A DNA stretch of 64,000 nt from Amyelois transitella. Its lineage: Eukaryota; Arthropoda; Insecta; Lepidoptera; Pyralidae. This document shows, one piece after another, positions 2,465 to 29,000 of the stretch. The stretch lies in assembly GCF_032362555.1 (NCBI RefSeq), contig NC_083507.1, positions 4,157,001 to 4,221,000 of the forward strand, given 5' to 3'. Numbering within the stretch: position 1 is the stretch's first letter; the number at the start of each line of letters is the position of its first letter. The notes beneath the pieces were generated by a model. It saw only the letters and a list, made by a program, of their open reading frames with translations, did no database searches and was not told the DNA's origin. The position numbers and the translations under genes were made by a program.

Positions 2465-5400
2465 ATGGCTCTGAAGGCGCTTGTTGGGCAAAGTAAGTTT
2501 ATAATAAATGTTTTTTTTTTACTTGAATAGAATTATATTTTGTATACAATTATGTAGTTTTATATTGTCTTAGGTACTAAGTTTTTAAATATTTATTCAT
2601 AGTGCCCAGTGATATCATATTTATGACTAATCCAATACAGTCCTCCCCGATTTTTCTTCTTATTGAAAAAACCTTATCTCTACGTGTTTTGTCAAACATT
2701 TTATATTCTAAATCAAACAGCATTTATAATAATAAATATTTCAAGTCCTAAGACTCACATCCTAATGAATATACGAAACGAACGTCTAGCTCCAGTCTTT
2801 ACCCAATACAGGCAAAATGACATTTTTTGACTATGATATAAACATTAGCTGATCCTTAATGATAGCATAAAATTAAGGTATTATTAAACATCGAATAGAA
2901 AATTTTCCTAACTCAACAATAGAATCTTTATATCTTAATGTTCAAATTATTGATTTTCTTGTGTCATGTCAGTGGGGTGGGGTGTTACTTTACGTCATTC
3001 ACTGCTTGATAACGCAAAACGCTGTGCTTAGGTAGCTTGTGCAGTTATTTTTCATAGTATTGAGATAATTAGTACTGATATGGCTTTTTATAAACTACAA
3101 AACAAAAACAAAATAGGAACACATAAAAATGAGTATGTACCCATGGATGTCGTAAATGGTGACTAAGGGAAAGGCTTATAATCTTGGGATTCTTCTTTTA
3201 GGTAATGGGCTGTAAACCTGTCACTATTTGAATCTTAATTCTATCATTAAGCTTTACATGGCCTATCATTCTTTACAAAACTGTTGAGTCTGTGGCAAGG
3301 GATATATACGTGATTATATTTTTGTATGTAAAAAATGTAAAAATTAGTAATTATAAATAAAAAACATTAAAATCTTATTTTGTTACAAAAAAAAATCTGG
3401 AATGATTCCAAACTATTGTAACCTTCCCCTACATACCCCTATATTAAATGTTAGTTTATGTTTTTAGCATTATATCTAAATATATCATCAGATACATGTT
3501 AAATGATTACACACATTATACAATACAACAATAAAGTTACATTTCAAGACCGATAGAATACTATAATATGTATAATTATCCTAAATTATATTATAAGTGT
3601 GAAAGTAAGTTTGTATGTTTATTTACTTTTCACACATTATCTACTGAACTTTGTTGATAACAAGGTCAATGTGCAGATTAACTGAACAAAAAAAATGTAT
3701 GTAGACAAAATGAAACTGGCCTCCTATAATCAATATTATACCATTTTGTGTTTACTCTAATTTACAGAGATTATGAATGAGGTGATCCGCTATCGCGGTC
3801 CCAAAGGAAAAGAGTCTCAGCGTATAGAATGGAGAATCCTGATAGTAGACCAACTGTCCATGAGAATGGTATCTGCATGCTGCAAGATGCATGATATCTC
3901 TGCTGAAGGCATTACTTGTAAGTAATATTGATGAGATTTAATCCTTTGATATGTCAACCTACTGATTTGAACAGGGTCATATAATTTGACTTACTTGACT
4001 TAAGATCCTATGTCCCCTAGCTGGGGCAGAGGGCATCCACAGTGCGTTGCCATCCTGCTCGGTCTTGAGCTTCGCGTTTTATTTCGCTCCAAGTCTTCCC
4101 AAGATTCTTCACCTCTGCGATGATTGTCCTCCGCCAGGTCTGTTTAGGGCGGCCACGTTTACGCTTTCCTTGGGGATTCCAGTCTAGGGCTTGCCTCGGT
4201 ATGTGTTCGGGGTCCCTTCGGAGCGTGTGGCCGATCCAGTTCCATTTGCGGCGTTTGATCTGCTGGTCGATCGGAGTCTCACCGCAGCGTTCCCACAGGT
4301 CTACGTTGGAGATTTTCTCAGGCCAGTAAACACCGAGAATACGGCGAAGACAGCGGTTAATGACGACTTGGAGACGGTGCGAGATGTCTTTAGTCACCTT
4401 CCATGTCTCACACCCATACAGCAAAATGGTTTTCACATTGGACCGGAATATTTTGAGCTTAACTCTCCTAGTCAGTTTCCGTGAATGCCATACGGACGGA
4501 GCTGTGCGAAGGTTGCTCTTGCCTTGGCGATTCTCGAAGTGATGTCCTCTTCGGTCCTTCCAGTTTCCGACACTACGAAAATTATATTCATATTCAGTCA
4601 TATAATTTAACTGATGTTAAACATCAGACTAAACATCATGACTGGCATGTTTTCAAAACTTTTAAACTTTATATGACTGATTTATATTACAAATTTTCAG
4701 ATATTATCTTACTATAGAAACTATATGATTTTTATAATGAAATTACATATTAGTTAATGTCATGATTATTTAATAAATTTAAGCAATATATTAAATAATC
4801 ATGACATTAAAAAGCCATTGTATTACAGTGGTAGAAGATATTCACAAGAAAAGGGAGCCACTATGCACCATGGATGGTATTTACCTCATCACTCCATGTG
4901 AAAAATCAGTCCACGCTCTCATCAATGACTTTTCAGTGGGCAACCGCATCATGTACAAAGCTGCCCATGTCTTCTTCACTGAAGGTATAATATAAAGTAA
5001 TAAATATAATGTTATTTCCCTTTAGCTTGTAGGTTATTTTGTTTTCTATTCTGCATACCTCTAAATGCAATTCACAAACTTTAATTTGAGGACATTATTG
5101 GTTAAAAGTTGTGTTTTTATAAAAATAGGTTTGTCCTTATAATAATTAATCAGTGATATTACATTCCGCCATGTAGATGTATGCCTTCCATTCATTTGCA
5201 AATTGCTAAATGCCATTATTGTTTAGTTCATGCTTCTTTTATTTGCATTTTCAATTTTCATTTTTATTTTAATTTTACAGCTTGCCCTGATGCATTATTT
5301 GATGAAATCTCACGTAGTCGTCTAGCTAAATATATAAAAACATTAAAGGAAATCAACATAGCTTTCATTCCATATGAACAACAGGTTTGTCTTAATTATT

Positions 5401-8400
5401 TTCACATCAACATTTGTAGGGTTCTATTAAAGCTTTCTGTTTAAAGACTGCCTCAAGTTGGTTTTAACATATTTGGAATGTTATTTTACACGCTGCATTA
5501 GTATGCCCTGAGGAGTTATTCAATGAAATCTGTAAGTCTTCTGCTGCAAGGAAAATCAAAACTTTGAAGGAAATTAACATTGCGTTTTTGCCCTATGAAA
5601 GCCAGGTAAACATGTCCTTAATTTTTGCATACATGAAGTATAAAATATAACTTTTAATGTTTTTTCATACTGTAAATTCTGCTTATGTGACCTGAGACAT
5701 TTGTATTAGATATGTTTGAAAGTAATTCCTATCTATCCCCATGTGACAGCATTTATTTAATTTCGGATGTTTTAAGCTATGATTAGAATGACAGAGATTT
5801 ATGTTTCGCCTTAGGTATTTTCTCTGGACTCTCCAGAGACCTTTCAATGCATGTACAATCCAGCGCTCGCGCAAACACGCAACGCCAACATGGAGCGCAT
5901 TGCCGAACAAATTGCTACACTCTGTGCTACGCTGGGAGAGTATCCATCCGTACGCTATCGCAGGTATGTTTTAAATAATAATTAATGTACATTGAAATGT
6001 CTAACCATTGAAAAATTGTTATCTTGGCAAGAGGATAGTGCAAAATATTAAACGAGCCTTCGACCTTGCAGATTAATTAATGCGTAATTTGTAAAAGATT
6101 CTAGATTATTGTCTATTATATTTTTATTTTGTTTTAGTGACTGGGAGCGTAATGTGGAACTGGCCCAGCTGATTCAGCAGAAACTTGATGCGTATAAGGT
6201 ATTATATGTATTCTTATGTAGGAAATTACTTTTATGTTTTTCTGTCTCATTTAGTGTAAAACAAAACAGTAAGTAATTGTAATTATTTTCCTTTCCGTAA
6301 AAGGCCGATGAACCAACAATGGGCGAGGGTCCCGAAAAGGCTCGCTCACAGCTCCTGGTCCTGGACCGCGGCTTCGATTGCGTCTCTCCTTTGCTACACG
6401 AGTTGACTCTCCAAGCTATGGCTTACGATCTTCTGCCCATAGAAAATGATGTCTATAAGTAAGATAATATTGTTGATAACTTAACTCTATTTAGTATTAC
6501 TTTGATCTAAGCAATTAACATCTTCACTCAAATCTCACTAAAATATTATACGCCATAAAGTTTCTTAAACAAATTATATATGTTTATTTTTATTGTACAA
6601 TATTCATACAGGTGTATGCATTATCTACTAGTTAACCATTGGTACTAATAGGAAATATGTATGTAATCCGTTTTAGATATGAGGCATCCCAAGGGCAACT
6701 GAAAGAGGTTTTGTTGGACGAGAATGATGAGCTATGGGTGGAACTGCGACATCAGCATATAGCTGTTGTGTCCACCTCTGTCACCAAGAACTTGAAAAAG
6801 TTCACTGAATCCAAACGCATGGGCGGTGGTAAGTTAGCCGTTCATATTATTCACCTCTATGAATTTTAATAAGTAATTTTAATAGGTTTTAGATTAAGGT
6901 TCTAAGCCCAGGAAGCTTGCACAAGATATCCCAAACATTTAACCGATTTTCGCATAAATGCCATGGTAAATACGACGCCGTAAAACTGTCAACCAATTTT
7001 TTATGCCATTTTACAAAACTACTTTTCATTATTTTTTCAGGAGACAAACAGTCCATGAGGGACTTGTCTCAAATGATCAAGAAAATGCCTCAGTACCAGA
7101 AGGAGTTATCTAAATACGCGACACATCTGAAACTCGCCGAAGACTGCATGAAAGCGTACCAGGGGTACGTCGACAAACTCTGCAAAGTGGAACAGGTTCG
7201 ATTATCTTCATATCTGTAACTTACCTAGTTTACAACTAAACCAGCCAGTGATTATCAAGGGGATATGGATTTTTGTCATGTTTAGGTTTTAGTGAATAAA
7301 ATAAAACCTGATAATATTTTAAATTAAATTGTCATAACAGTTTATTCCAATCAGTCTATTCTTCTGTAGAAAAAGATTTATTTTCGAAATGGAAAATAAA
7401 TTAGAAATTATTTGCTACTTATTAGAAAGGATGTTTATTTAAAAATTATATCTTAAATTAGAATTAGCTCTTCCAAAGAAAAAGTATAGAATAGCGAAAG
7501 ATTAAAATTGCGTTATAAATGTAAAATTTTATATCTTTCTTATTTCAGGATCTAGCCATGGGAACTGATGCTGAAGGTGAAAAGATCAAAGATCATATGC
7601 GTAGCATTGTGCCTGTTCTACTAGACCAGGTAATAATAGGACCAGGACCAGTAAATACCATGATTGACAATTTAATAAATCCAAAACATAATAATGAAAC
7701 TTTAATAAAAATGTAAATGTGTTATTTGCTGTTGTTTCAGGCTGTCTCCAACTTCAACAAGATGCGCATTATCGCTCTGTACATTATGTCTAAGAATGGC
7801 ATATCTGAGGAGAACCTGAACAAGTTGGTGACGCACGCGCAGCTCGAGCCTTCCGACAAGCAGGCGCTGCTGAACCTCGCCAACCTCGGCCTCAACGTTG
7901 TGCTGGATGTAAGGCTATTTTACAACTAGCTGTTGCCCTTGCGATTGCCACTTCTTGCCGTAGCCGAAGAAATCCTTTGGCAATATTTTTCAAGTTCAGA
8001 CATGGGCCAGTTAGAATTTTATGACATGTGTGGATAAACAATAATTACACCAATCAATTCTATAAACCTGTTTTTTGGAAATGCACTAATCACAACGATG
8101 GGTACAGAAAGTTACATCCCACGCTTACATTAAATTCGCCAATATAATTTGATCTTACAGGGCAACAGAAAAAAGCAATATCAAGTGCCGAGAAAGGAGA
8201 GAATCACTGAACAAACTTACCAAATGTCGAGATGGACGCCCATTTTGAAGGTAACCATTTATGTGTGCCCCTAAAACGGCTTGTCAAATGGCAAGTCATT
8301 ATTATATTTTCAATTATGCATAACTTTACCAGTTTTGCTGTGGTGTACAAATTAACAAATCTTTTTTTACCCAGGATATCATGGAGGACGCTATTGATGA

Positions 8401-11028
8401 AAAACTGGACCAGCGTCACTTCCCGTTCCTAGCTGGTCGCGCCCAGAGTTCCGGCTATCAAGCACCCACCAGGTGAACTTTGATTCTTATGCGCTTTTGT
8501 AAAGATACTCATCCTAGCATCAATAGGCTAGTTGACTGTTTTTTGGTCTTGGGTTTGGGTTTTGGTTGGTGTTCATTAGTTTATATTTGTTATTTTGGCC
8601 CAAAAAATATATAACATTTTTTTAAATATCTATTAAGTACCAAAAATTTCTTTATATGATTTTAATTTTTCAAAAACGAGCGTAAATGCTATCCGCCACC
8701 GCCGCTATGTAGTGTATTTATTATCTGTGCTCTGACGTCATAGTATAAACAAACATTTGACTTGAAATGATGTGTAGGGACTTATTTACATATAGTTTAT
8801 ATTTCTGACGTATCAAATTCAAAAATTAACACACATTTTTAAAATGGGGTTCATAGCGCTTTAAATTGTTAAAATTTATATATTTTGTTTTCCTTGATTT
8901 AATAGGATAGGAAATATTCATTTATTATATGAAATTCATTATGAGTTTAGTAGCCTGTTCCAGTTATCTCTTCACCTCTCTGAAGAGGAGCCCGGGTGCA
9001 CTTTCGACCATGAACCTAGACCCTGTGATTCAGGTTTTTTCACTCAGCGTCTCTCATCTGACCTTCGCAACCTTTTCAGGGTAATTTGGTCCTTATTGAA
9101 TCGTGGTTAGACATCCAGATTTTCTTAACGATGTTTTAGTGCATCAGTTGTCACTGAAACTAATGTACACAACACAGAAATAAGTCATATAGGATTTGAA
9201 ATTGTGCCTGCACATCCAATGTTCACACATATTACTTATTCTTCAGACTGCCGCTGATAAACAAATAGTACCCTGTTAACCGAGCTTTGCTTGGTCTACC
9301 AGAGATGGCGCAGATATAGTTTCTTAAAACGCGGTTTTTAAAATGTTTATATATCTTGGGAACCGAGATTTTCTCGAACCTTGGTAAATCGATTCCTTGA
9401 GCCGAAAAGCCCCTAATCTGTAACTTTCATGAAAATCGTTGGAGCCGTGTCCGAGATCCTGATAATATACATATATACAAGAATTGCTCGTTTAAATATA
9501 TTAGATAGATAGTTGTTTATTTTCTATTCCTGCGCTTAATATGAACGATTTAATATTAAAAGGTGTAATCATTTATTGTTTCAGTGTAAGATATGGGCAC
9601 TGGCACAAGGATAAAGCTCAGCAAACCATCAAGAATGTTCCACGTCTTCTCGTTTTTATCGTAGGCGGTAAGTTATACCTTATTCCCCATAGTTTTTGAT
9701 CAGTTGTAGTCACATCTTTTTCGAGCAATGTACGAGGCATATCCTAGAATGTAATTTGTCAAGACTAAATATTTATTTGATCATAACAAATATTGCCCTT
9801 AAATGCCTTTTTTTATATATTTATAATTCTTAATACAAGTTTTGACCCGAGATATTAATTTTATGATGATGAATGCATCATCAGCATAAAGCTGAAAAGA
9901 GATAAAGAAAAGTAACTTGATGGTCAGCGGAATGCTCGCGGTGCTCAGTATAAATTCCTTCGTGGTGATAACCGTACATTTCTCCATCGTCGTGCACCAA
10001 TCAGACTTTACTTGTCAGCAAGTCTTCTCCACTTGTCCTGCATCCCCCTCTGCAATTATTTTACGACTTCAAACTTCCTTACGGAGATATTAGGCTCCTT
10101 ATATATTTAACTAATTTGAAAGCGCTCCTCCCGCGTAAAACGAAATATCCCTTTAACCTCGTGGGAATTACAGAAAATTTATTATTTACATGTCAAATTT
10201 CAAGTTTTTAGACCCAGATGGGGTTGAGAGGGAAGTGAGTTTTCTAAGCTTTCTGTCTCACAAGAACGGAAAAGTTTTGTATAATATTGATGTAAATTAT
10301 ACTTTTGTTCTCGGAAAAAAGGGCCTTATTGAATGTTAATTATGGTAGAGATTGTCTAAGCTGAAGTGACGCGCCCCACCTTCGTATTTACGCACACAAG
10401 CAAATATCAAATATGGACGCAATACACCTAAACATCAATCGTTCATTTGCCGGTTAGGCTCAAACTGTTTTTCTCAAATTTGTTGAATTTTGTTGCCCAA
10501 CTAGTTTAGTTGAACTTAAACGTTCGAGAGGAGAGGACGTTTTGTTTCATACAATATGACGTCGCTGCTCCATAGAGCGAGCGTGGTCGGATTTATCGCC
10601 CGACAAGTCGACCGTATTGTTCACGTGCAGATCGTAGTTCACTGAACAATCGACGCTACCACACAGATGAAGTGTCGTCATTAATATTTGCACTCACACA
10701 TCTAAATAAACTAATTAAGTAGTGGGGCGCGTCACTTCAGCTTAGACAATCTCTATGTAAAAAAGCACCATACGTTCTCAGTGCTTCAAACTACTCCAAA
10801 ATGGTGTACGAATTTCATGTAGAAGTGATGAGAACACAACACTTTCCATTTACAATAATATGAACCAATAATATATGTCGTTTTTTGTTGTCAGGAGTAT
10901 GCTTTTCGGAAATTCGTTGTGCTTACGAAGTGACAGCTGCCCTCAAAAACTGGGAAGTGATCATCGGCTCTTCGCACATTCTCACGCCCGACACTTTCTT
11001 GTCCGATCTCAGCTCCCTCACCGCCTAA
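2465..11028 (+). CDS. Rop: Rop, Sec1/Munc18 family syntaxin-binding protein (complete copy)
   Basis: Rop/Munc18-1 (STXBP1) clasps syntaxin and controls SNARE assembly in synaptic and general secretion. It is a cytosolic, peripheral membrane protein. Coding exons: 2465-2492, 3768-3917, 4829-4984, 4a 5281-5384 or 4b 5502-5605, 5815-5963, 6138-6198, 6304-6458, 6677-6828, 7041-7195, 7549-7629, 7741-7908, 8161-8250, 8375-8472, 9585-9667, 10895-11028. With one exon 4 this gives 1764 nt and 587 aa, the usual family length, and all junctions stay in frame. The protein starts MALKALVGQ, as in fly Rop. It keeps [19 protein letters not shown]-like, [33 protein letters not shown] and [10 protein letters not shown] segments. 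It ends in DLSSLTA. Exons 3-15 also occur in the second copy downstream. Confidence 0.95.
3130..3330 (+). repeat. Lepidopteran SINE-like repeat, copy 3, in Rop intron 1
   Basis: Same block order as the copy at 1309: 'acccatggatgtcgtaaa', 'ttgggattcttct', 'cctgtcactatttgaatc', 'gcaagggatatatacgtgat'. It is diverged and non-coding. Confidence 0.6.
3976..4608 (-). mobile_element. 5'-truncated LINE (RTE-like), reverse transcriptase C-terminal end, in Rop intron 2
   Basis: A minus-strand ORF (4601-4017, 194 aa) encodes the C-terminal tail of a non-LTR reverse transcriptase. Recognisable pieces are [43 protein letters not shown] and [15 protein letters not shown]. The 12-bp sequence GTCATATAATTT flanks it at 3976-3987 and 4597-4608 and fits a target-site duplication. 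The 3' end carries a short AAGTCAAGTAAGTC-type repeat instead of poly(A), as in RTE elements. The 5' part of the element is missing, as usual for LINE insertions. An open frame and a perfect flanking repeat suggest a young insertion. Confidence 0.8.
5281..5384 (+). other. Rop: Rop alternative exon 4a
   Basis: A 104-nt exon after a TTTTACAG acceptor, with donor GTTTGT. It encodes residues 112-146 of domain 1 and begins [14 protein letters not shown]. It closely resembles exon 4b in length, phase and sequence. The start resembles vertebrate Munc18-1 (ACPDALFNEL). Because 104 is not a multiple of three, using both exon 4 versions or neither would shift the frame, so splicing must choose one. Confidence 0.9.
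5502..5605 (+). other. Rop: Rop alternative exon 4b
   Basis: A second 104-nt exon 117 bases after 4a, with acceptor CATTAG and donor GTAAAC. It begins [16 protein letters not shown] and ends FLPYESQ, very close to the single constitutive version in fly Rop ([16 protein letters not shown]). Exon 4b is therefore likely the ancestral form and 4a the diverged duplicate. Confidence 0.9.
8940..9275 (-). repeat. tRNA-derived SINE-like repeat in Rop intron 13
   Basis: It contains blocks common in Lepidoptera: 'cctctctgaagaggagccc', 'cctagaccctgtgattcag' and 'gtcactgaaactaatgtaca'. It ends in 'gaaattgtgcctgc' and 'actgccgctg', which look like degenerate B and A boxes on the minus strand. No ORF. Confidence 0.5.
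9290..9512 (+). repeat. Non-coding LINE 3'-end-like fragment in Rop intron 13
   Basis: It contains 'accgagctttgcttggtcta', 'catgaaaatcgttggagccg' and a terminal 'agaattgctcgttt' followed by an AGATAGATAG-like tail. This resembles the 3' end of an arthropod non-LTR element. The assignment is by resemblance only. Confidence 0.35.
10346..10755. mobile_element. MITE with 34-bp perfect terminal inverted repeats, in Rop intron 14
   Basis: Positions 10346-10379 and 10722-10755 are exact reverse complements (start TAGAGATTGTCTAAGC). The element begins and ends with TA, the target duplication typical of Tc1/mariner-type MITEs. The 340-bp interior has no ORF. Perfect ends suggest recent activity. Confidence 0.8.
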
Positions 11029-12540
11029 ACGAGATTCACGAAGTACGCATTACGGTATGGATGACTTTAACTTGCAAGGCTAAAAATGAATAAAATGTCA
11101 GAGGAAACTTGGCGGAAACCGATTCAACGCAATACTGATAGATAAAATAGCACTCGAAATTGTACGGGAAAGTATAACAAAAACATTAAGCTACACTGTA
11201 AAACATTTACTGGTTTGTATACTCGATATAAAATTGCTGCAAAAGAAATAAAGCGTAATATTTTCCCCTGAGTTGAAGTTCCGTTGATAAGTTGTAGGTA
11301 TTTTCGATATTCGGAACATTTTCCGCCAGGTTTTATTTATACTGCCTTGTCGGATTCTGACTTTAGATTTTCGATTAGCATTTTATTGAAATAGTCGATC
11401 TTTATAAAGTGATATAAGGTATTGTAATTTTGCAGCTACTTGCTGAGATAGACACCAATAATAGGCTTATCTATTGTCGACTTGATGTTAATGGTAGTAC
11501 AATGTGACAAATAGAAAAAGCTGTTTTATTATTACATCCTTAATTTTCAATACCTAAATTTTTGTTCTTATTTTCTACGAGGCCTGTAAACATCGCTCCT
11601 AAAAAGATAACTTCGGTCATTTGTGATATTAAAAAATTATTGAAGTTAATTTTTGTAAATTATGTAGAATTATAGTGTTATAATTGTATACAAATGTTTT
11701 ATAATTTAAGTCGTTCTATATTAAGTTATAAGAATTACTTACTTTTTTATTATATTATTAACTATTTCGTGTTGATGTTTCAAACATTCAATCTTTTTAA
11801 TAATTTAAAAAAAAAATAAAAAATAAAATCTTTATAAAATAAAACCATGATCATTATTCAGGCGTGGATGATAAATAGTATTGTTGAAATATTGTGCTAT
11901 CACTAGAATTAGACCGTGACGTGATCCTATGTAACTACATATTAGTAAAGGTTTAAATTTGTTTTATTAGCTAAACATCGCCTTGTTTCATTAATTTAAT
12001 GCCAAATGGTTTAGCAGTGCGGATATTTCGTAGTGTGTAATTATGACAAATGCCCCAACAGAGAAATGAAAACATTAATAGGCACACCATAAGTTCATTC
12101 TGTCATGTTTAAATGGTGATATAATATTTGCTAGTATTAATAAAGTAGGAATTTTCGATCTTATTATTCTAAATGTTAAATCACATATACTGGATCCAGT
12201 TTTGTTTACATTCCAATAAATATTATATGTATGTACATTATATTATGATGTTACTCGCTTTTTCACTCGAGTCGTTTGTCGATTAGTATTAAAACTAGAA
12301 TATATTTCTTACACATTACATTAGAAAGTAATCTTTGAAATCACAAGGTTATAATCAATTATTTGATTTGTCAACAAATTAACACTTTCAAAATGAATAT
12401 GACATTAACATTGTTGAAGTATAGGGATGTAATGTTCACCTAGTGAACTATATATTCATTATTATAGCCTCTGAATATAAACTCTGTATGCTTTATCGTA
12501 ATTTGTTTGAAAACTAAGGAAATACTACGATCATTTATAA
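11029..12540. other. Spacer between Rop and ASS1, no gene seen
   Basis: AT-rich sequence that includes the Rop 3' UTR; AATAAA motifs lie near 11815 and 12218. No convincing ORF or RNA gene. Confidence 0.55.
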
Positions 12541-13171
12541 ATGTCGCAGGAAAATGAAGTGAACCAGAGATTTCGCGAAATCCCTAGGGATACCACGAAA
12601 GCACGGCATATGTTGAATATTCTTATTTACGACGCTTTCTTACTAAAATAGTCAGTGAAATGTCATTTCACTAAATTAAATCTAGTGAAATGTCAGAAAA
12701 ACGGATACCTCCGAGTAAAAATCGTCCAATGTATCTCTCCCTCTCTCTACCCAAACGGACACAAGTGGGAGCGGAAGGAAGCCGCCGTGAAAGCGACCGC
12801 CGCGTCACGAATATGATCGATGGCACCATGTGGTTTTAGCGGGTTCAAGCCCCACATATCCCTAACTTTAACCTTCCCGAACCCGGCCGGGTAGACGAAG
12901 GTCTTTCCACACGTAAAAAAAAAGGTTAGGTTAGGTTAATAATTATGAAAGTACTTTTAAAAGGACTTAGCACGAACCTTTTTCATTCTGTATTTCACTA
13001 GATTTAGATGAGTGAAATGATATATCACTAGATTGAAATAGTATTTTGTCATATCACTAATAATTTTTAGTAAGAAGATGTATTAAATAGGAATATTCAC
13101 CATCTTCCGTGATTTCGTGGTATACCGAGGGATTTCGTGAAATCTCTGATATCCTCATTTCTCTGCGACAT
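12541..13171. mobile_element. Long-TIR DNA element with internal poly(A) and telomere-like repeat
   Basis: The ends are long imperfect inverted repeats. They begin TGTCGCAGG and end CTGCGACA, and similarity runs for about 150 bases on each side (for example 'cagagatttcgcgaaatccc' against its reverse complement). A TAAA flanks both ends. The middle holds a GC-rich block, a B-box-like GGGTTCAAGCCCC, then a run of nine A followed by GGTTAGGTTAGGTT at 12916-12938. No ORF. It is non-autonomous. Confidence 0.65.
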
Positions 13172-13475
13172 AAATACATAAGGTAGTTTCAAATACCACA
13201 GTGTCATGATCACTGCTATCATGTGCAATAACAGTAGTTCATATTGTCTAACACAGTTAACTTATCAGTATTGGATTGTTAAGAGTTTCATTAAATTATT
13301 CTATATTATCTTTAATATTTTGTTTTTCTTTTATCTAAACCTTTCATATATTCTTGTTATCATAGTATTTATCTCTATGTTTGTTATATACTTGAAGTTT
13401 ACCGTGGTGTCAACAGCCCAAATGACCCTAAGGTTATCGATTATTATTAAATATTATTAGATACAATTAAAACAT

Positions 13476-13481
13476 TCAGTC
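13476..13481 (+). promoter_or_regulatory. Candidate initiator (TCAGTC) of ASS1, copy A
   Basis: TCAGTC matches the arthropod initiator consensus and lies 35 bases before the ASS1 start codon, giving a short 5' leader. No TATA box was found at the expected distance. The same site is at 25962-25967 in the second copy. Confidence 0.35.
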
Positions 13482-13515
13482 ATTACATGATCGTTGACTA
13501 CGGCTCCCGACAACA

Positions 13516-14435: not shown

Positions 14436-14478
14436 GTACGTCTACAGTTTTAATATTTTTCTCACTATAATGTGCATA

Positions 14479-16449: not shown

Positions 16450-16461
16450 GATTTGAACAGG

Positions 16462-17094
16462 GTCATATAATTTGACTTACTTGACTTAAGATCCTATGTC
16501 CCCTAGCTGGGGCAGAGGGCATCCACAGTGCGTTGCCATCCTGCTCGGTCTTGAGCTTCGCGTTTTATTTCGCTCCAAGTCTTCCCAAGATTCTTCACCT
16601 CTGCGATGATTGTCCTCCGCCAGGTCTGTTTAGGGCGGCCACGTTTACGCTTTCCTTGGGGATTCCAGTCTAGGGCTTGCCTCGGTATGTGTTCGGGGTC
16701 CCTTCGGAGCGTGTGGCCGATCCAGTTCCATTTGCGGCGTTTGATCTGCTGGTCGATCGGAGTCTCACCGCAGCGTTCCCACAGGTCTACGTTGGAGATT
16801 TTCTCAGGCCAGTAAACACCGAGAATACGGCGAAGACAGCGGTTAATGACGACTTGGAGACGGTGCGAGATGTCTTTAGTCACCTTCCATGTCTCACACC
16901 CATACAGCAAAATGGTTTTCACATTGGACCGGAATATTTTGAGCTTAACTCTCCTAGTCAGTTTCCGTGAATGCCATACGGACGGAGCTGTGCGAAGGTT
17001 GCTCTTGCCTTGGCGATTCTCGAAGTGATGTCCTCTTCGGTCCTTCCAGTTTCCGACACTACGAAAATTATATTCATATTCAGTCATATAATTT
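16462..17094 (-). mobile_element. 5'-truncated LINE (RTE-like), copy in duplication B
   Basis: Identical to the element at 3976-4608, including the 12-bp flanking repeat, so the LINE inserted before the block was duplicated. Confidence 0.8.
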
Positions 17095-20000
17095 AACTGA
17101 TGTTAAACATCAGACTAAACATCATGACTGGCATGTTTTCAAAACTTTTAAACTTTATATGACTGATTTATATTACAAATTTTCAGATATTATCTTACTA
17201 TAGAAACTATATGATTTTTATAATGAAATTACATATTAGTTAATGTCATGATTATTTAATAAATTTAAGCAATATATTAAATAATCATGACATTAAAAAG
17301 CCATTGTATTACAGTGGTAGAAGATATTCACAAGAAAAGGGAGCCACTATGCACCATGGATGGTATTTACCTCATCACTCCATGTGAAAAATCAGTCCAC
17401 GCTCTCATCAATGACTTTTCAGTGGGCAACCGCATCATGTACAAAGCTGCCCATGTCTTCTTCACTGAAGGTATAATATAAAGTAATAAATATAATGTTA
17501 TTTCCCTTTAGCTTGTAGGTTATTTTGTTTTCTATTCTGCATACCTCTAAATGCAATTCACAAACTTTAATTTGAGGACATTATTGGTTAAAAGTTGTGT
17601 TTTTATAAAAATAGGTTTGTCCTTATAATAATTAATCAGTGATATTACATTCCGCCATGTAGATGTATGCCTTCCATTCATTTGCAAATTGCTAAATGCC
17701 ATTATTGTTTAGTTCATGCTTCTTTTATTTGCATTTTCAATTTTCATTTTTATTTTAATTTTACAGCTTGCCCTGATGCATTATTTGATGAAATCTCACG
17801 TAGTCGTCTAGCTAAATATATAAAAACATTAAAGGAAATCAACATAGCTTTCATTCCATATGAACAACAGGTTTGTCTTAATTATTTTCACATCAACATT
17901 TGTAGGGTTCTATTAAAGCTTTCTGTTTAAAGACTGCCTCAAGTTGGTTTTAACATATTTGGAATGTTATTTTACACGCTGCATTAGTATGCCCTGAGGA
18001 GTTATTCAATGAAATCTGTAAGTCTTCTGCTGCAAGGAAAATCAAAACTTTGAAGGAAATTAACATTGCGTTTTTGCCCTATGAAAGCCAGGTAAACATG
18101 TCCTTAATTTTTGCATACATGAAGTATAAAATATAACTTTTAATGTTTTTTCATACTGTAAATTCTGCTTATGTGACCTGAGACATTTGTATTAGATATG
18201 TTTGAAAGTAATTCCTATCTATCCCCATGTGACAGCATTTATTTAATTTCGGATGTTTTAAGCTATGATTAGAATGACAGAGATTTATGTTTCGCCTTAG
18301 GTATTTTCTCTGGACTCTCCAGAGACCTTTCAATGCATGTACAATCCAGCGCTCGCGCAAACACGCAACGCCAACATGGAGCGCATTGCCGAACAAATTG
18401 CTACACTCTGTGCTACGCTGGGAGAGTATCCATCCGTACGCTATCGCAGGTATGTTTTAAATAATAATTAATGTACATTGAAATGTCTAACCATTGAAAA
18501 ATTGTTATCTTGGCAAGAGGATAGTGCAAAATATTAAACGAGCCTTCGACCTTGCAGATTAATTAATGCGTAATTTGTAAAAGATTCTAGATTATTGTCT
18601 ATTATATTTTTATTTTGTTTTAGTGACTGGGAGCGTAATGTGGAACTGGCCCAGCTGATTCAGCAGAAACTTGATGCGTATAAGGTATTATATGTATTCT
18701 TATGTAGGAAATTACTTTTATGTTTTTCTGTCTCATTTAGTGTAAAACAAAACAGTAAGTAATTGTAATTATTTTCCTTTCCGTAAAAGGCCGATGAACC
18801 AACAATGGGCGAGGGTCCCGAAAAGGCTCGCTCACAGCTCCTGGTCCTGGACCGCGGCTTCGATTGCGTCTCTCCTTTGCTACACGAGTTGACTCTCCAA
18901 GCTATGGCTTACGATCTTCTGCCCATAGAAAATGATGTCTATAAGTAAGATAATATTGTTGATAACTTAACTCTATTTAGTATTACTTTGATCTAAGCAA
19001 TTAACATCTTCACTCAAATCTCACTAAAATATTATACGCCATAAAGTTTCTTAAACAAATTATATATGTTTATTTTTATTGTACAATATTCATACAGGTG
19101 TATGCATTATCTACTAGTTAACCATTGGTACTAATAGGAAATATGTATGTAATCCGTTTTAGATATGAGGCATCCCAAGGGCAACTGAAAGAGGTTTTGT
19201 TGGACGAGAATGATGAGCTATGGGTGGAACTGCGACATCAGCATATAGCTGTTGTGTCCACCTCTGTCACCAAGAACTTGAAAAAGTTCACTGAATCCAA
19301 ACGCATGGGCGGTGGTAAGTTAGCCGTTCATATTATTCACCTCTATGAATTTTAATAAGTAATTTTAATAGGTTTTAGATTAAGGTTCTAAGCCCAGGAA
19401 GCTTGCACAAGATATCCCAAACATTTAACCGATTTTCGCATAAATGCCATGGTAAATACGACGCCGTAAAACTGTCAACCAATTTTTTATGCCATTTTAC
19501 AAAACTACTTTTCATTATTTTTTCAGGAGACAAACAGTCCATGAGGGACTTGTCTCAAATGATCAAGAAAATGCCTCAGTACCAGAAGGAGTTATCTAAA
19601 TACGCGACACATCTGAAACTCGCCGAAGACTGCATGAAAGCGTACCAGGGGTACGTCGACAAACTCTGCAAAGTGGAACAGGTTCGATTATCTTCATATC
19701 TGTAACTTACCTAGTTTACAACTAAACCAGCCAGTGATTATCAAGGGGATATGGATTTTTGTCATGTTTAGGTTTTAGTGAATAAAATAAAACCTGATAA
19801 TATTTTAAATTAAATTGTCATAACAGTTTATTCCAATCAGTCTATTCTTCTGTAGAAAAAGATTTATTTTCGAAATGGAAAATAAATTAGAAATTATTTG
19901 CTACTTATTAGAAAGGATGTTTATTTAAAAATTATATCTTAAATTAGAATTAGCTCTTCCAAAGAAAAAGTATAGAATAGCGAAAGATTAAAATTGCGTT

Positions 20001-21425
20001 ATAAATGTAAAATTTTATATCTTTCTTATTTCAGGATCTAGCCATGGGAACTGATGCTGAAGGTGAAAAGATCAAAGATCATATGCGTAGCATTGTGCCT
20101 GTTCTACTAGACCAGGTAATAATAGGACCAGGACCAGTAAATACCATGATTGACAATTTAATAAATCCAAAACATAATAATGAAACTTTAATAAAAATGT
20201 AAATGTGTTATTTGCTGTTGTTTCAGGCTGTCTCCAACTTCAACAAGATGCGCATTATCGCTCTGTACATTATGTCTAAGAATGGCATATCTGAGGAGAA
20301 CCTGAACAAGTTGGTGACGCACGCGCAGCTCGAGCCTTCCGACAAGCAGGCGCTGCTGAACCTCGCCAACCTCGGCCTCAACGTTGTGCTGGATGTAAGG
20401 CTATTTTACAACTAGCTGTTGCCCTTGCGATTGCCACTTCTTGCCGTAGCCGAAGAAATCCTTTGGCAATATTTTTCAAGTTCAGACATGGGCCAGTTAG
20501 AATTTTATGACATGTGTGGATAAACAATAATTACACCAATCAATTCTATAAACCTGTTTTTTGGAAATGCACTAATCACAACGATGGGTACAGAAAGTTA
20601 CATCCCACGCTTACATTAAATTCGCCAATATAATTTGATCTTACAGGGCAACAGAAAAAAGCAATATCAAGTGCCGAGAAAGGAGAGAATCACTGAACAA
20701 ACTTACCAAATGTCGAGATGGACGCCCATTTTGAAGGTAACCATTTATGTGTGCCCCTAAAACGGCTTGTCAAATGGCAAGTCATTATTATATTTTCAAT
20801 TATGCATAACTTTACCAGTTTTGCTGTGGTGTACAAATTAACAAATCTTTTTTTACCCAGGATATCATGGAGGACGCTATTGATGAAAAACTGGACCAGC
20901 GTCACTTCCCGTTCCTAGCTGGTCGCGCCCAGAGTTCCGGCTATCAAGCACCCACCAGGTGAACTTTGATTCTTATGCGCTTTTGTAAAGATACTCATCC
21001 TAGCATCAATAGGCTAGTTGACTGTTTTTTGGTCTTGGGTTTGGGTTTTGGTTGGTGTTCATTAGTTTATATTTGTTATTTTGGCCCAAAAAATATATAA
21101 CATTTTTTTAAATATCTATTAAGTACCAAAAATTTCTTTATATGATTTTAATTTTTCAAAAACGAGCGTAAATGCTATCCGCCACCGCCGCTATGTAGTG
21201 TATTTATTATCTGTGCTCTGACGTCATAGTATAAACAAACATTTGACTTGAAATGATGTGTAGGGACTTATTTACATATAGTTTATATTTCTGACGTATC
21301 AAATTCAAAAATTAACACACATTTTTAAAATGGGGTTCATAGCGCTTTAAATTGTTAAAATTTATATATTTTGTTTTCCTTGATTTAATAGGATAGGAAA
21401 TATTCATTTATTATATGAAATTCAT

Positions 21426-21761
21426 TATGAGTTTAGTAGCCTGTTCCAGTTATCTCTTCACCTCTCTGAAGAGGAGCCCGGGTGCACTTTCGACCATGAA
21501 CCTAGACCCTGTGATTCAGGTTTTTTCACTCAGCGTCTCTCATCTGACCTTCGCAACCTTTTCAGGGTAATTTGGTCCTTATTGAATCGTGGTTAGACAT
21601 CCAGATTTTCTTAACGATGTTTTAGTGCATCAGTTGTCACTGAAACTAATGTACACAACACAGAAATAAGTCATATAGGATTTGAAATTGTGCCTGCACA
21701 TCCAATGTTCACACATATTACTTATTCTTCAGACTGCCGCTGATAAACAAATAGTACCCTG
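21426..21761 (-). repeat. tRNA-derived SINE-like repeat, copy in duplication B
   Basis: Duplicate of the repeat at 8940-9275. The LINE-like fragment that follows (21776-21998) likewise repeats 9290-9512. Confidence 0.5.
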
Positions 21762-22831
21762 TTAACCGAGCTTTGCTTGGTCTACCAGAGATGGCGCAGA
21801 TATAGTTTCTTAAAACGCGGTTTTTAAAATGTTTATATATCTTGGGAACCGAGATTTTCTCGAACCTTGGTAAATCGATTCCTTGAGCCGAAAAGCCCCT
21901 AATCTGTAACTTTCATGAAAATCGTTGGAGCCGTGTCCGAGATCCTGATAATATACATATATACAAGAATTGCTCGTTTAAATATATTAGATAGATAGTT
22001 GTTTATTTTCTATTCCTGCGCTTAATATGAACGATTTAATATTAAAAGGTGTAATCATTTATTGTTTCAGTGTAAGATATGGGCACTGGCACAAGGATAA
22101 AGCTCAGCAAACCATCAAGAATGTTCCACGTCTTCTCGTTTTTATCGTAGGCGGTAAGTTATACCTTATTCCCCATAGTTTTTGATCAGTTGTAGTCACA
22201 TCTTTTTCGAGCAATGTACGAGGCATATCCTAGAATGTAATTTGTCAAGACTAAATATTTATTTGATCATAACAAATATTGCCCTTAAATGCCTTTTTTT
22301 ATATATTTATAATTCTTAATACAAGTTTTGACCCGAGATATTAATTTTATGATGATGAATGCATCATCAGCATAAAGCTGAAAAGAGATAAAGAAAAGTA
22401 ACTTGATGGTCAGCGGAATGCTCGCGGTGCTCAGTATAAATTCCTTCGTGGTGATAACCGTACATTTCTCCATCGTCGTGCACCAATCAGACTTTACTTG
22501 TCAGCAAGTCTTCTCCACTTGTCCTGCATCCCCCTCTGCAATTATTTTACGACTTCAAACTTCCTTACGGAGATATTAGGCTCCTTATATATTTAACTAA
22601 TTTGAAAGCGCTCCTCCCGCGTAAAACGAAATATCCCTTTAACCTCGTGGGAATTACAGAAAATTTATTATTTACATGTCAAATTTCAAGTTTTTAGACC
22701 CAGATGGGGTTGAGAGGGAAGTGAGTTTTCTAAGCTTTCTGTCTCACAAGAACGGAAAAGTTTTGTATAATATTGATGTAAATTATACTTTTGTTCTCGG
22801 AAAAAAGGGCCTTATTGAATGTTAATTATGG

Positions 22832-23241
22832 TAGAGATTGTCTAAGCTGAAGTGACGCGCCCCACCTTCGTATTTACGCACACAAGCAAATATCAAATAT
22901 GGACGCAATACACCTAAACATCAATCGTTCATTTGCCGGTTAGGCTCAAACTGTTTTTCTCAAATTTGTTGAATTTTGTTGCCCAACTAGTTTAGTTGAA
23001 CTTAAACGTTCGAGAGGAGAGGACGTTTTGTTTCATACAATATGACGTCGCTGCTCCATAGAGCGAGCGTGGTCGGATTTATCGCCCGACAAGTCGACCG
23101 TATTGTTCACGTGCAGATCGTAGTTCACTGAACAATCGACGCTACCACACAGATGAAGTGTCGTCATTAATATTTGCACTCACACATCTAAATAAACTAA
23201 TTAAGTAGTGGGGCGCGTCACTTCAGCTTAGACAATCTCTA
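22832..23241. mobile_element. MITE with 34-bp perfect TIRs, copy in duplication B
   Basis: Duplicate of the element at 10346-10755. Confidence 0.8.
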
Positions 23242-23514
23242 TGTAAAAAAGCACCATACGTTCTCAGTGCTTCAAACTACTCCAAAATGGTGTACGAATT
23301 TCATGTAGAAGTGATGAGAACACAACACTTTCCATTTACAATAATATGAACCAATAATATATGTCGTTTTTTGTTGTCAGGAGTATGCTTTTCGGAAATT
23401 CGTTGTGCTTACGAAGTGACAGCTGCCCTCAAAAACTGGGAAGTGATCATCGGCTCTTCGCACATTCTCACGCCCGACACTTTCTTGTCCGATCTCAGCT
23501 CCCTCACCGCCTAA

Positions 23515-25026
23515 ACGAGATTCACGAAGTACGCATTACGGTATGGATGACTTTAACTTGCAAGGCTAAAAATGAATAAAATGTCAGAGGAAACTTGGCG
23601 GAAACCGATTCAACGCAATACTGATAGATAAAATAGCACTCGAAATTGTACGGGAAAGTATAACAAAAACATTAAGCTACACTGTAAAACATTTACTGGT
23701 TTGTATACTCGATATAAAATTGCTGCAAAAGAAATAAAGCGTAATATTTTCCCCTGAGTTGAAGTTCCGTTGATAAGTTGTAGGTATTTTCGATATTCGG
23801 AACATTTTCCGCCAGGTTTTATTTATACTGCCTTGTCGGATTCTGACTTTAGATTTTCGATTAGCATTTTATTGAAATAGTCGATCTTTATAAAGTGATA
23901 TAAGGTATTGTAATTTTGCAGCTACTTGCTGAGATAGACACCAATAATAGGCTTATCTATTGTCGACTTGATGTTAATGGTAGTACAATGTGACAAATAG
24001 AAAAAGCTGTTTTATTATTACATCCTTAATTTTCAATACCTAAATTTTTGTTCTTATTTTCTACGAGGCCTGTAAACATCGCTCCTAAAAAGATAACTTC
24101 GGTCATTTGTGATATTAAAAAATTATTGAAGTTAATTTTTGTAAATTATGTAGAATTATAGTGTTATAATTGTATACAAATGTTTTATAATTTAAGTCGT
24201 TCTATATTAAGTTATAAGAATTACTTACTTTTTTATTATATTATTAACTATTTCGTGTTGATGTTTCAAACATTCAATCTTTTTAATAATTTAAAAAAAA
24301 AATAAAAAATAAAATCTTTATAAAATAAAACCATGATCATTATTCAGGCGTGGATGATAAATAGTATTGTTGAAATATTGTGCTATCACTAGAATTAGAC
24401 CGTGACGTGATCCTATGTAACTACATATTAGTAAAGGTTTAAATTTGTTTTATTAGCTAAACATCGCCTTGTTTCATTAATTTAATGCCAAATGGTTTAG
24501 CAGTGCGGATATTTCGTAGTGTGTAATTATGACAAATGCCCCAACAGAGAAATGAAAACATTAATAGGCACACCATAAGTTCATTCTGTCATGTTTAAAT
24601 GGTGATATAATATTTGCTAGTATTAATAAAGTAGGAATTTTCGATCTTATTATTCTAAATGTTAAATCACATATACTGGATCCAGTTTTGTTTACATTCC
24701 AATAAATATTATATGTATGTACATTATATTATGATGTTACTCGCTTTTTCACTCGAGTCGTTTGTCGATTAGTATTAAAACTAGAATATATTTCTTACAC
24801 ATTACATTAGAAAGTAATCTTTGAAATCACAAGGTTATAATCAATTATTTGATTTGTCAACAAATTAACACTTTCAAAATGAATATGACATTAACATTGT
24901 TGAAGTATAGGGATGTAATGTTCACCTAGTGAACTATATATTCATTATTATAGCCTCTGAATATAAACTCTGTATGCTTTATCGTAATTTGTTTGAAAAC
25001 TAAGGAAATACTACGATCATTTATAA
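23515..25026. other. Spacer, no gene seen (copy B of 11029-12540)
   Basis: Same sequence as the first Rop-ASS1 spacer. No gene recognised. Confidence 0.55.
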
Positions 25027-25657
25027 ATGTCGCAGGAAAATGAAGTGAACCAGAGATTTCGCGAAATCCCTAGGGATACCACGAAAGCACGGCATATGTT
25101 GAATATTCTTATTTACGACGCTTTCTTACTAAAATAGTCAGTGAAATGTCATTTCACTAAATTAAATCTAGTGAAATGTCAGAAAAACGGATACCTCCGA
25201 GTAAAAATCGTCCAATGTATCTCTCCCTCTCTCTACCCAAACGGACACAAGTGGGAGCGGAAGGAAGCCGCCGTGAAAGCGACCGCCGCGTCACGAATAT
25301 GATCGATGGCACCATGTGGTTTTAGCGGGTTCAAGCCCCACATATCCCTAACTTTAACCTTCCCGAACCCGGCCGGGTAGACGAAGGTCTTTCCACACGT
25401 AAAAAAAAAGGTTAGGTTAGGTTAATAATTATGAAAGTACTTTTAAAAGGACTTAGCACGAACCTTTTTCATTCTGTATTTCACTAGATTTAGATGAGTG
25501 AAATGATATATCACTAGATTGAAATAGTATTTTGTCATATCACTAATAATTTTTAGTAAGAAGATGTATTAAATAGGAATATTCACCATCTTCCGTGATT
25601 TCGTGGTATACCGAGGGATTTCGTGAAATCTCTGATATCCTCATTTCTCTGCGACAT
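25027..25657. mobile_element. Long-TIR DNA element, copy in duplication B
   Basis: Duplicate of 12541-13171, with the A-run and GGTTAGGTTAGGTT at 25402-25424. Confidence 0.65.
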
Positions 25658-26001
25658 AAATACATAAGGTAGTTTCAAATACCACAGTGTCATGATCACT
25701 GCTATCATGTGCAATAACAGTAGTTCATATTGTCTAACACAGTTAACTTATCAGTATTGGATTGTTAAGAGTTTCATTAAATTATTCTATATTATCTTTA
25801 ATATTTTGTTTTTCTTTTATCTAAACCTTTCATATATTCTTGTTATCATAGTATTTATCTCTATGTTTGTTATATACTTGAAGTTTACCGTGGTGTCAAC
25901 AGCCCAAATGACCCTAAGGTTATCGATTATTATTAAATATTATTAGATACAATTAAAACATTCAGTCATTACATGATCGTTGACTACGGCTCCCGACAAC
26001 A

Positions 26002-29000
26002 ATGGCTAAGGATCTAGTTATTCTTGCTTATTCCGGAGGATTGGATACTAGTTGCATATTGAAATGGTAAAACTCCTTAAATAAATTCATTTTTGATGCG
26101 TGATTTATTAAGATTTGATTTGTTTAACAATGATATTTTTTTTTAAAACTTGTTCGAAGGTTAATAGTACCTACCTATAGCTCAAAGATAAAGCTATCCC
26201 AATTATTTACTGCGCTTGTATGTTACCAGGTTAATTCAGCAAAATTATGACGTTGTTTGCTATTTAGCTGATGTCGGTCAGAACGAAAATTTTGAAAAAG
26301 CAAAGGTGAAAGCCAAATCGATTGGAGCCAAAGATGTAAGTACTTAAACTTTTTGCAAAGAAAATCCCGCGATTTCTTGTCCAGCCACACAAAACGAAGT
26401 ATTGGTAGTCGAAATCCCGTTCTGAGTTTTTAGAGGCCTGCTGGCAGTGGGGTTATTGCGAGTTTTACCCGATCAAACTAGTCTAGCAAGTGGAATGGAA
26501 ATGCATTAGGTGCATCTCAAACTAAATATGTATATGATTTTTCGTCCAAGAGGTGCATGGCATAAGATTCTTCGCGTCACTACTAGGTGGCGCTGATTAA
26601 ATCATATACATATTTGCATTTAATTGCTCCAATCGTTTGATGAAATTAAACTCACATTAACCCCGCAGGTCTTCAACTCCAACAGATATCCACCTCTTTC
26701 TAAAGAATTAGTCAAAGAAAAGAAAGAAGTGCTTTGTAGAACTAAATTATTGATTTTAAGGTAATTGTGGAAGATTTACGTGAGGAGTTCATCAGCAATT
26801 ACATGTTTCCGGCAATTCAAATGGGTTTAGTGTACGAAAGCCGATACTTGTTAGGAACTTCGTTGGCAAGACCATGCATCTCAGTTGGAATCGTCAAAGC
26901 AGCAAAAACATTGGGCGCCAAGTACGTCTACAGTTTTAATATTTTTCTCACTATAATGTGCATATCCTACTACTATTATAAAGGCGAAAGTTTGTATGGA
27001 TGTTTGTTACTCTTTCACGCAAAAACTACTGAACCGATTACCATGAAATTTGGTATGTAGGTAGCTGAAGTCCCAGAATAACACATAGGCTACTTTTTAT
27101 CCCAGAGTTCCCGCGGGATTGATAGGGTTTCCATGCGGACGAAGTCGCGGGCGGCCTCTAGTACTAAATATATACCAGTCTTCTGTACATAGAAAATATT
27201 TAAAAAAAATATTCATCGGGGGTGTTACTAGATCGACCCAAAATCCCAAAAGGTGATAAGAAATAATTTTTGTCTGTATATTCGAGCATGACTCGACTAA
27301 CAATTAAATTTGATTACCAATAAGTATACTTAGCATCCTAGGCACAATACACCCAGTATTGTGCCTAGGATGCTAAGGACTTTAAATGCTCGAAAAAAGT
27401 ACTATTCCGCGAAATTTGCGAAAAACCACCGCGGGAAATTTGGCATGTACATTATTACACAGTGTAGGGAAGGGAGCACTTGGAGGAGAATCGCGAAACA
27501 TTGTCAAAGGCGCGCACCGCGTTCGTCTTCAGAGGGGTGAGGATGTTAACGCGGCCAACACCAGGAGAAAAAAGAAGAATAAAATAGCATTCGCTACTAA
27601 ATTATTTTTCGACTTTCAGATACATTTCCCATGGCGCTACAGGTAAAGGAAATGATCAAGTGCGCTTTGAGTTAAGCGTTTATTCTCTTTGGCCAGAAGG
27701 AAAGGTATGTTGTGTGTCTCGTTCTATGTTCGGGTTTCGTACACCATAAAAATATGATTTAGCAGTGAAACTATGTCAAAATTGTATATTGCATATATTG
27801 TCATCAGAATACATATTAGGATACCTAAATATGATTTAAAGTGATGGAAAACGTAACTACCTACAAGTAAATACAAATCATCTTTCATCAAATGCAGGTG
27901 ATAGCTCCGTGGCGTATCCCTGAATTTTTCCAAAGATTTCAAGGAAGAAGCGATCTAATCGAGTATGCCAAGAACGAGAACATACCTGTATCGGCAACTC
28001 CCAAGGAACCGTGGTCTACTGATGAAAACATCATGCATATCAGGTACCTACTTAATTTAGAATTTGTTGTCTCTATAGGTATAATGTCAAACTCAAATAC
28101 TGCGGAACGGAAAGGCAATTGTATTTAAACCACAAAAAAAATCTGTTGCTGGGATCTAACCACTGAGCCACTAGTGAAGTTATCGCGCACGCCCTATAAT
28201 TATCGATGCTAGCGACCATCTTATATGGTAAAATGATATGCGCAAAAATCACAGAAAATAAAATAATTTACGTGTTTTATTTCATAACACACGCACACGC
28301 AAACAATCGACGCAGGTCCTTCCTCTGCAGCGTCTCCGACTAAAGTATATTCGAAAGATTTCTATAACTGGTAGCTCTCACAGACTGTCATCGTTAGTCA
28401 AGAGAATGTATGGTTGCTCTATGAAAAAAATATAAAAAACTACTTATATAACAATATTGTTTATAAACTTAGGTATATGATATGATAGGGGCGAAATATG
28501 CAACATAAAAAAAAATCATTTAAAATAAAATTAAGTACCGGTGAAAATTAAGTCCTTGAATCGTATTTTGGATTTAGGATATTTTGAAACAGATTTTTTT
28601 CGAAAAATCAAGCGTCTGAATTTTAAAGTCACCTAGCCTGTACCTACTTAATTCAGAATATCTCTCCAAAAATTCACAAATTTTGATTTGCCGCACCTTA
28701 AAGCCGCTGAGATTTTGACCTGAGAGCTTGTTTGTTTCAGCAAAGGAAAAAAAAAAGAACAAATTTGTACGCCAGAGGCTCCGAATGCTTAATAATCACT
28801 GCCGCTGAATAATCACATTAATTTCCGCTAGTATTCTGGGAAATTATGTAATCTACATGCCTAATTTCAAATCTCCAGAAGGTTTGGGCTATGTAATATG
28901 CCAAAAAATCAGTAATGTCCTCTTTTATTTATTGTTAGATATGCTAAGTTTTCTTTCAATATACACTTACAGTTACGAATCTGGCGTACTTGAGGATCCA

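What the first reader, a model, noticed from the sequence alone, without database searches (positions are those of the whole stretch)
3964..27355. 10.9-kb tandem duplication with no visible divergence, splitting Rop and ASS1
Two collinear 10,906-bp copies, offset exactly 12,486 bases, carry introns, LINE, MITE and Helitron-like insertions without a net indel and without a mismatch in any stretch I compared. Introns in moths differ between haplotypes, so such identity implies either a very recent duplication or an assembly error. If real, it keeps one intact Rop and one intact ASS1 while creating broken inner copies.
Basis: partly seen in the sequence, partly recalled or inferred. Interest (0 to 1): 0.75.

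Follow-up and report, generated by a model that had tools for sequence, protein, structure and literature searches.

The report
Moth gene-pair duplication with cut transposon
In a moth genome a 10.9-kb stretch holding parts of two genes stands twice in a row, letter for letter, and the sequence at its two ends suggests a recent accident in which a DNA break in a hairpin loop was joined to a broken jumping gene; it is an instructive but ordinary kind of duplication.

Summary
In detail: 3964-14869 and 16450-27355 are identical over 10,906 bp; two probes from the block found no third full-length copy. The species is inferred to be Amyelois transitella.

The boundaries explain the duplication. The 1,580-bp spacer is a cut Mutator-like transposon (MULE). 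The 8 intact copies examined are 2,160 bp with 8-bp target-site duplications. Position 16449 is the exact MULE terminus. So the block's left edge is only the predicted target site (GATTTGAA) of a MULE insertion in Rop intron 2, still empty at 3964.

The only truly new junction is 14869|14870: 3 bp of microhomology (CCA), in the 5-nt loop of a perfect 22-bp hairpin in ASS1 intron 3, joined to the MULE at its base 580/581.

Best explanation: one non-homologous end joining between a chromatid without and one with the MULE. The outer Rop (from its second exon) and ASS1 stay open; the inner copies are broken. No reads were available, so an artefact is not excluded. A known kind of event.

The parts
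3773..3917 (+). Rop (Munc18/STXBP1 homologue) second coding exon (from its Met) in the left flank L; donor GTAAGT at 3918
   Evidence: phmmer to S-SEC1; spliced open frame
3964..14869 (+). Block copy A1: Rop exons 3 to end, intergenic region, ASS1 exons 1-3 and part of ASS1 intron 3
   Evidence: 10,906 bp identical to 16450-27355
3964..3971 (+). GATTTGAA: predicted empty target site of the MULE insertion, single copy, no footprint, after 46 bp of Rop intron 2
   Evidence: 8-bp target-site duplications flank other copies; same 8 bp follow the MULE end at 16450
13516..14435 (+). ASS1 exons 1-3 in A1 (truncated copy); protein record P0090 (156 aa) equals these exons plus read-through to the stop at 14572-14574
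14867..14869 (+). CCA: 3-bp microhomology at the only new junction, A1 (ASS1 intron 3) to MULE interior
   Evidence: intact MULE reads TTCCA|ATATATC, intact ASS1 intron reads ACCCA|GTATTG, junction reads ACCCA|ATATATC
14870..16449 (-). Spacer B: 1,580 of 2,160 bp of a MULE, lacking 580 bp on the 14870 side; transposase ORF cut within codon 386
   Evidence: 0 differences to the intact copy in L008; 12 places with the top score over all 1,580 bp including this one; protein alignment; Pfam MULE and FLYWCH
16450..27355 (+). Block copy A2: Rop exons 3 to end without its start, plus ASS1 exons 1-3 of the open ASS1 gene
16450..16457 (+). GATTTGAA beside the MULE terminus: predicted retained half of its target-site duplication
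27329..27377 (.). Perfect 22-bp hairpin with 5-nt loop ACCCA in ASS1 intron 3; the block ends at the last loop base (27355); A1 keeps only the left arm (14843-14864)
   Evidence: no other locus matched the palindrome in a genome search
26002..33228 (+). ASS1 (argininosuccinate synthase), 10 exons, 413 codons open across A2-R

Best explanation
This is a real, recent tandem duplication made by one non-homologous end-joining event between two nearly identical chromatids, sisters or homologues of a low-diversity line. Shown from sequence: the spacer is a MULE with one exact end and one broken end; the left edge of the block lies exactly at that end and begins with a fitting 8-bp target site; the only junction not explained by an insertion is 14869|14870, with 3 bp of microhomology, inside the loop of a perfect hairpin. 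Inferred: a MULE inserted at GATTTGAA in Rop intron 2 of one chromatid; that chromatid broke inside the MULE; the other, still without the MULE, broke at the hairpin in ASS1 intron 3; and the left part of the second was joined to the right part of the first. The product is L-A-(cut MULE)-A-R, and the reciprocal product would be a deletion of A. The outer Rop and ASS1 stay open, so the event is probably near neutral (inference). The inner copies are an ASS1 5' fragment and a Rop fragment without its start. A splice from inner ASS1 exon 3 to inner Rop exon 3 would be out of frame and stop after 24 codons.
For: One perfect run of 10,906 bp. MULE anatomy from 8 of the 11 other top-scoring places: 2,160 bp in 8 of 8, 8-bp target-site duplication exact in 7 of 8 and matching at 7 of 8 bases in one. 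MULE ends exactly at 16449 and A2 begins with GATTTGAA, single copy at 3964. Window protein identical to P0001 through residue 387 (385 of them encoded wholly by the MULE part), then different. CCA microhomology. Hairpin 22/22 with the break in its 5-nt loop; only 4 such hairpins (perfect arms of 14 or more, loop up to 12) in 64 kb, so a chance break in any such loop is about 4-6 in 10,000. No other locus matched the palindrome. Open outer genes; out-of-frame fusion.
Against: No reads or depth were available, so neither junction is shown in a single molecule. No chromosome with the whole MULE at this site, and no reciprocal deletion, is held. Four other one-ended MULE copies whose host flank I searched (C21, C20, C16, C10) show no second full-length copy of that flank, so cut MULEs of this family do not usually come with a duplication. 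The chance figure for the hairpin was computed after seeing it. The target-site reading rests on the terminus and the 8-bp rule of other copies; the partner copy of GATTTGAA on the lost side cannot be seen. Order of events is inferred from parsimony.
Confidence: 0.62

Rival explanations
1. Assembly artefact: the sampled animal or line was polymorphic for a MULE insertion at Rop intron 2, and a chimeric read or a wrong join linked a contig ending at the hairpin to a contig starting inside the repeated MULE, writing the block twice.
For: Both sides of 14869|14870 are places where assemblies or polymerases may stumble (my judgement): a hairpin loop, and a repeat with 11 other top-scoring places. 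Identity is perfect. False duplications are a known assembly problem (PMC9516828, search listing and start of abstract).
Against: The join is gap-free, without N, with only 3 bp in common, which overlap assembly does not normally accept (recalled); a physical chimeric molecule would be needed. An ordinary uncollapsed haplotype would give a join at homologous positions, not in unrelated sequence. The protein record P0090 only shows that the truncated ASS1 copy has been annotated; its contig length (13,257,997) is not that of C3 (13,252,500), so whether it stands for an independent assembly is unknown.
Confidence: 0.18
2. Abortive alternative transposition: transposase acted on MULE ends of two sister chromatids, as in maize Ac/Ds, but one end was broken and repaired by end joining, leaving a tandem direct duplication with a cut element at its junction.
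For: Tandem direct duplication with a class II element between the copies is the product described for maize Ac (PMC3744419, passages read). The family looks recently active: among 8 full copies only 3 positions vary. Sister chromatids explain zero divergence.
Against: The 8-bp target-site duplication at the new breakpoint and the second MULE end are missing. The L-A1 site is a clean empty site without footprint. The maize study started from a pair of reversely oriented ends; no second MULE was found in this 64-kb window.
Confidence: 0.12
3. Replication-based template switching (MMBIR/FoSTeS): a fork stalled at the ASS1 hairpin and restarted by 3-bp microhomology in the MULE on the sister chromatid.
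For: Same product and same 3-bp microhomology; palindromes are known fragile sites (start of abstract of PMC7999016) and hairpins stall forks (recalled).
Against: No second switch or inserted scrap is seen at the junction. A single clean join needs only end joining. Sequence alone can hardly tell the two apart.
Confidence: 0.08

Closest known systems
Unequal non-homologous recombination making tandem duplications (yeast CUP1 arrays, PMC4232551; abstract with start of introduction, and section 17 read)
   Same: One join of two different break sites on two copies of a chromosome gives a tandem duplication and, reciprocally, a deletion; junction repeats there are 3 bp or less; breaks are suggested at fragile sequences.
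   Different: Here one of the two breaks is inside a transposon that was present on only one of the two chromatids (inferred), so a cut transposon stands between the copies; the block is 10.9 kb, not about 1.2-2 kb.
Reversed-ends transposition of maize Ac giving tandem direct duplications (PMC3744419; 12 of 19 found passages read)
   Same: Direct duplication with a DNA transposon at the junction; sister chromatids involved.
   Different: The twinned Ac duplication and deletion alleles share an 8-bp target-site duplication at the new breakpoints and the duplication carries Ac; here that end is missing and the break shows microhomology.
Mutator-like elements of the Phantom group (PMC6446971; 12 of 15 found passages read)
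   Same: Animal MULE with FLYWCH domain, TIRs and 8-bp target-site duplication within the ranges given there (8-10 bp, TIR 18-613 bp or none).
   Different: Group membership was not tested by a tree; the copy in the window is cut and has only one end.

Membership tests
Tandem duplication by unequal non-homologous end joining | Direct repeat without long homology at the two breakpoints | tested here: met
   3-bp CCA only at 14867-14869
Tandem duplication by unequal non-homologous end joining | Junction present in a single DNA molecule | not testable with these tools
   no reads held
Tandem duplication by unequal non-homologous end joining | Reciprocal deletion in the population | not testable with these tools
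   one assembly only
Reversed-ends or sister-chromatid transposition | Target-site duplication and intact transposon end at the new breakpoint | tested here: not met
   MULE lacks 580 bp and its second TIR at 14870
Mutator-like element (MULE superfamily) | MULE transposase domain | tested here: met
   PF10551 54.6 bits against cut-off 27.6 for the window's ORF
Mutator-like element (MULE superfamily) | TIRs and 8-11 bp target-site duplication in intact copies | tested here: met
   about 127-bp TIRs 90-91% alike; 8 bp exact in 7 of 8 copies examined
Phantom group of MULEs | Phylogenetic place within the group | not tested
   no tree built
Duplication by non-allelic homologous recombination | Long homology between the two breakpoint regions of the single-copy locus | tested here: not met
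   no match between the left and right edges of the block in the self-comparisons

The most novel reading that the evidence does not exclude
A Mutator-like element in an animal produced a tandem gene-block duplication in the act of moving: one end was inserted by transposase at an 8-bp target, while the other end broke and was captured by a hairpin break on the sister chromatid. That would be an animal MULE counterpart, with an end-joined second end, of the alternative-transposition duplications of maize. It overlaps in part with the best explanation (insertion and break in one act) and in part with the second rival.
Probability: 0.15. Interest if true: 0.55.

Novelty: new member of a known kind. 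Interest (0 to 1): 0.34.

Why it matters
It is a nearly unscarred case in which both edges of a young gene-block duplication can be read to the base: one edge is a transposon target site, the other a hairpin loop joined by 3 bp. It shows how a polymorphic transposon insertion plus a hairpin can copy a gene block while leaving the outer genes open. It is also a warning for annotation: the inner fragment is listed as a separate argininosuccinate synthase-like protein.

Tried and rejected
Considered and rejected. (1) Homologous unequal crossing over: no match between the two edges. (2) MULE inserted after a plain A-A duplication: the element lacks one end and that side's target-site copy, so an insertion would need a second event ending exactly at the block edge. 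(3) The block edge as the 3' end of the LINE-like element: no shared word longer than 8 bp was found as a target-site pair, and the exact MULE terminus explains the edge better. (4) The hairpin as part of a transposon family: no other locus matched it (the tool skips very common words, so this is not absolute; the right flank at about 27489-27585 has 13 weak matches of 74-83% elsewhere). (5) A general habit of cut MULEs to duplicate flanks: 4 of 4 one-ended copies tested (C21, C20, C16, C10) have one full-length match of the host flank, itself (the C20 flank also holds a dispersed repeat, 87 matches in all). Self-comparison of about 20 kb around each of 9 sites, these 4 included, listed (first 12 rows each, over 150 bp and 90%) a longest match of 614 bp, inverted, and a longest direct match of 382 bp, none like a flanking duplication. 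(6) An in-frame ASS1-Rop fusion: exon 3 to exon 3 is out of frame. (7) P0090 as independent proof: its contig length fits none of the 32 contig lengths of the held assembly that I read (C28 was not read), so I could not tell which record it stands for. Led nowhere: viral-contig scan (five stretches matched a pattern, none confirmed); paper searches on the assembly (listings only) did not give the read type; the search of the left flank did not complete, nor one across the MULE-A2 edge.
Full report
OBSERVATION. Comparing the window with itself at offset 12,486 gives one uninterrupted match of 10,906 bp, 3964-14869 against 16450-27355, with no mismatch. BLASTN finds the same pair and, apart from a 120-bp tandem array, no other match over 300 bp in the window. 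Two probes from inside the block give two full-length matches each in the whole assembly of 327,366,114 bp, both in this window, which is G000:C3:4157001-4221000. I call the parts L - A1 (3964-14869) - B (14870-16449) - A2 (16450-27355) - R.

SPECIES. The transposase frame in B matches a 454-aa protein of Amyelois transitella (navel orangeworm) at 100% over the 385 residues searched, and that record's contig length (14,039,998) equals contig C31 of the held assembly.

GENES. Frames with stops read as X, searched against solved structures, place Rop (syntaxin-binding protein) and ASS1 (argininosuccinate synthase) on the plus strand. Spliced by GT-AG, Rop is open for 576 codons from 3773 to 11028 across L and A1, with either of two alternative fourth exons; its short first exon was not located. 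ASS1 is open for 413 codons from 26002 to 33228 across A2 and R. The inner copies are ASS1 exons 1-3 in A1 and Rop exons 3 to end in A2. If inner ASS1 exon 3 were spliced to inner Rop exon 3, the frame would be lost and stop after 24 codons, 134 in all. A protein record named argininosuccinate synthase-like of A. transitella, 156 aa, equals ASS1 exons 1-3 plus read-through into intron 3, so the fragment has been annotated as a gene. Its contig length (13,257,997) differs from C3 (13,252,500) and from the other 31 of 33 contig lengths I read (C28 not read); I do not know which record it stands for.

THE SPACER. B has 53 matches in the assembly (a capped search, so a lower bound). 14 rows cover all 1,580 bp at 100% as rounded, 12 of them, this place included, with the top score. 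Of the 11 other top-scoring places I examined 8 with flanks: all 8 are 2,160 bp long, begin CCTTTCGGCCG and end in its reverse complement; 7 of 8 have an exact 8-bp target-site duplication and one differs at one base. Among the 8 full copies only positions 12, 22 and 86 vary: a young family. It has the Pfam MULE and FLYWCH domains. In the window the element keeps its transposase-start end, exactly to its last base at 16449, and has lost 580 bp at the other end; its protein equals that of the intact copy through residue 387 (385 residues lie wholly in the MULE, the next two match across the microhomology) and then runs into A1.

THE LEFT EDGE IS A TARGET SITE. Right of the MULE end stand the bases GATTTGAA (16450-16457), which are also the first 8 bases of A1 (3964-3971), after 46 bp of Rop intron 2. 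There they stand once and without footprint. This is what a MULE insertion at that site on one chromosome, and an empty site on the other, would look like. The left edge of the duplicated block thus needs no rearrangement of its own.

THE ONE NEW JUNCTION. At 14869|14870 the sequence changes from ASS1 intron 3 to the MULE interior. The intact MULE reads ...TTCCA|ATATATC, the intact intron (A2-R) ...ACCCA|GTATTG, the junction ...ACCCA|ATATATC: three bases (CCA) are shared. In A2-R the same spot is the loop of a perfect hairpin, arms 27329-27350 and 27356-27377, loop ACCCA; only 4 hairpins with perfect arms of at least 14 and loops up to 12 were found in the window, so a random break would fall in such a loop with a chance of about 4-6 in 10,000 (computed after the fact). 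No hairpin lies at the MULE break. In a genome search of 27300-27600 no other locus matched the palindrome; the flank at about 27489-27585 has 13 weak matches of 74-83% elsewhere.

MECHANISM. Joining the left part of a chromatid without MULE, broken at the hairpin, to the right part of a chromatid with the MULE, broken inside it, gives L-A-(cut MULE)-A-R in one step. The same logic, two breaks on sister chromatids joined end to end with little or no homology, was proposed for yeast CUP1 arrays (PMC4232551; abstract and section 17 read). The product also resembles the tandem direct duplications made by maize Ac (PMC3744419; passages read), but the target-site duplication and transposon end at the new breakpoint are missing, so I do not file it there.

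AGE. No difference in 10,906 bp bounds the age at about 47,000 generations (95%, two lineages, 2.9e-9 per site and generation; rate from the start of the abstract of PMC4271535; a butterfly, not this moth). Random haplotypes at 0.5-1% diversity (assumed, not measured) would differ at about 55-109 sites, so the two copies descend from one recent haplotype, or from sister chromatids.

RESULTS AGAINST. I have no reads. Other cut MULE copies occur, but in 4 of 4 tested the host flank has no second full-length copy, so this duplication is a single case and not a habit of the family. An assembly artefact would need a physical chimera at a spot with 3 bp in common; possible, less likely.

VERDICT. 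Observation confirmed; interpretation refined. A real recent tandem duplication by end joining is most likely (0.62), artefact 0.18, abortive alternative transposition 0.12, template switching 0.08. The top rows of five paper searches (listings, each a part of all papers found) showed no paper on this locus, which does not prove there is none.

Noticed in passing
window 5281-5384 and 5502-5605: Two alternative versions of Rop exon 4 (104 bp each), each keeping the frame open: probably mutually exclusive exons. Relatives in several moths and butterflies are listed as isoforms X1, X2 and so on; I did not compare those isoforms.
   Followed up: partly
window 58612-59430: Tandem array of a 120-bp unit, 6.7 copies, 96% matches.
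   Followed up: no
G000:C20:1322968-1323895 (L019/L020): Two cut copies of the same MULE head to tail: 259 bp up to the exact terminus, directly followed by a 669-bp piece ending in the terminus; the host flank has one full-length match, itself. A small analogue of the window's event inside the element.
   Followed up: partly
G000:C16:93582-94117 and G000:C21:727817-728163: MULE copies with one exact end and one cut end, without a matching target-site copy at the cut end: one-ended copies recur in this genome.
   Followed up: partly
window 14508-14676, 26994-27162 and 51322-51490: A 169-bp dispersed repeat, 94% identical, that supplies the last part of the annotated 156-aa argininosuccinate synthase-like protein.
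   Followed up: no
window about 36671-38329: Two stretches matching Mediator subunit 22 downstream of ASS1.
   Followed up: no
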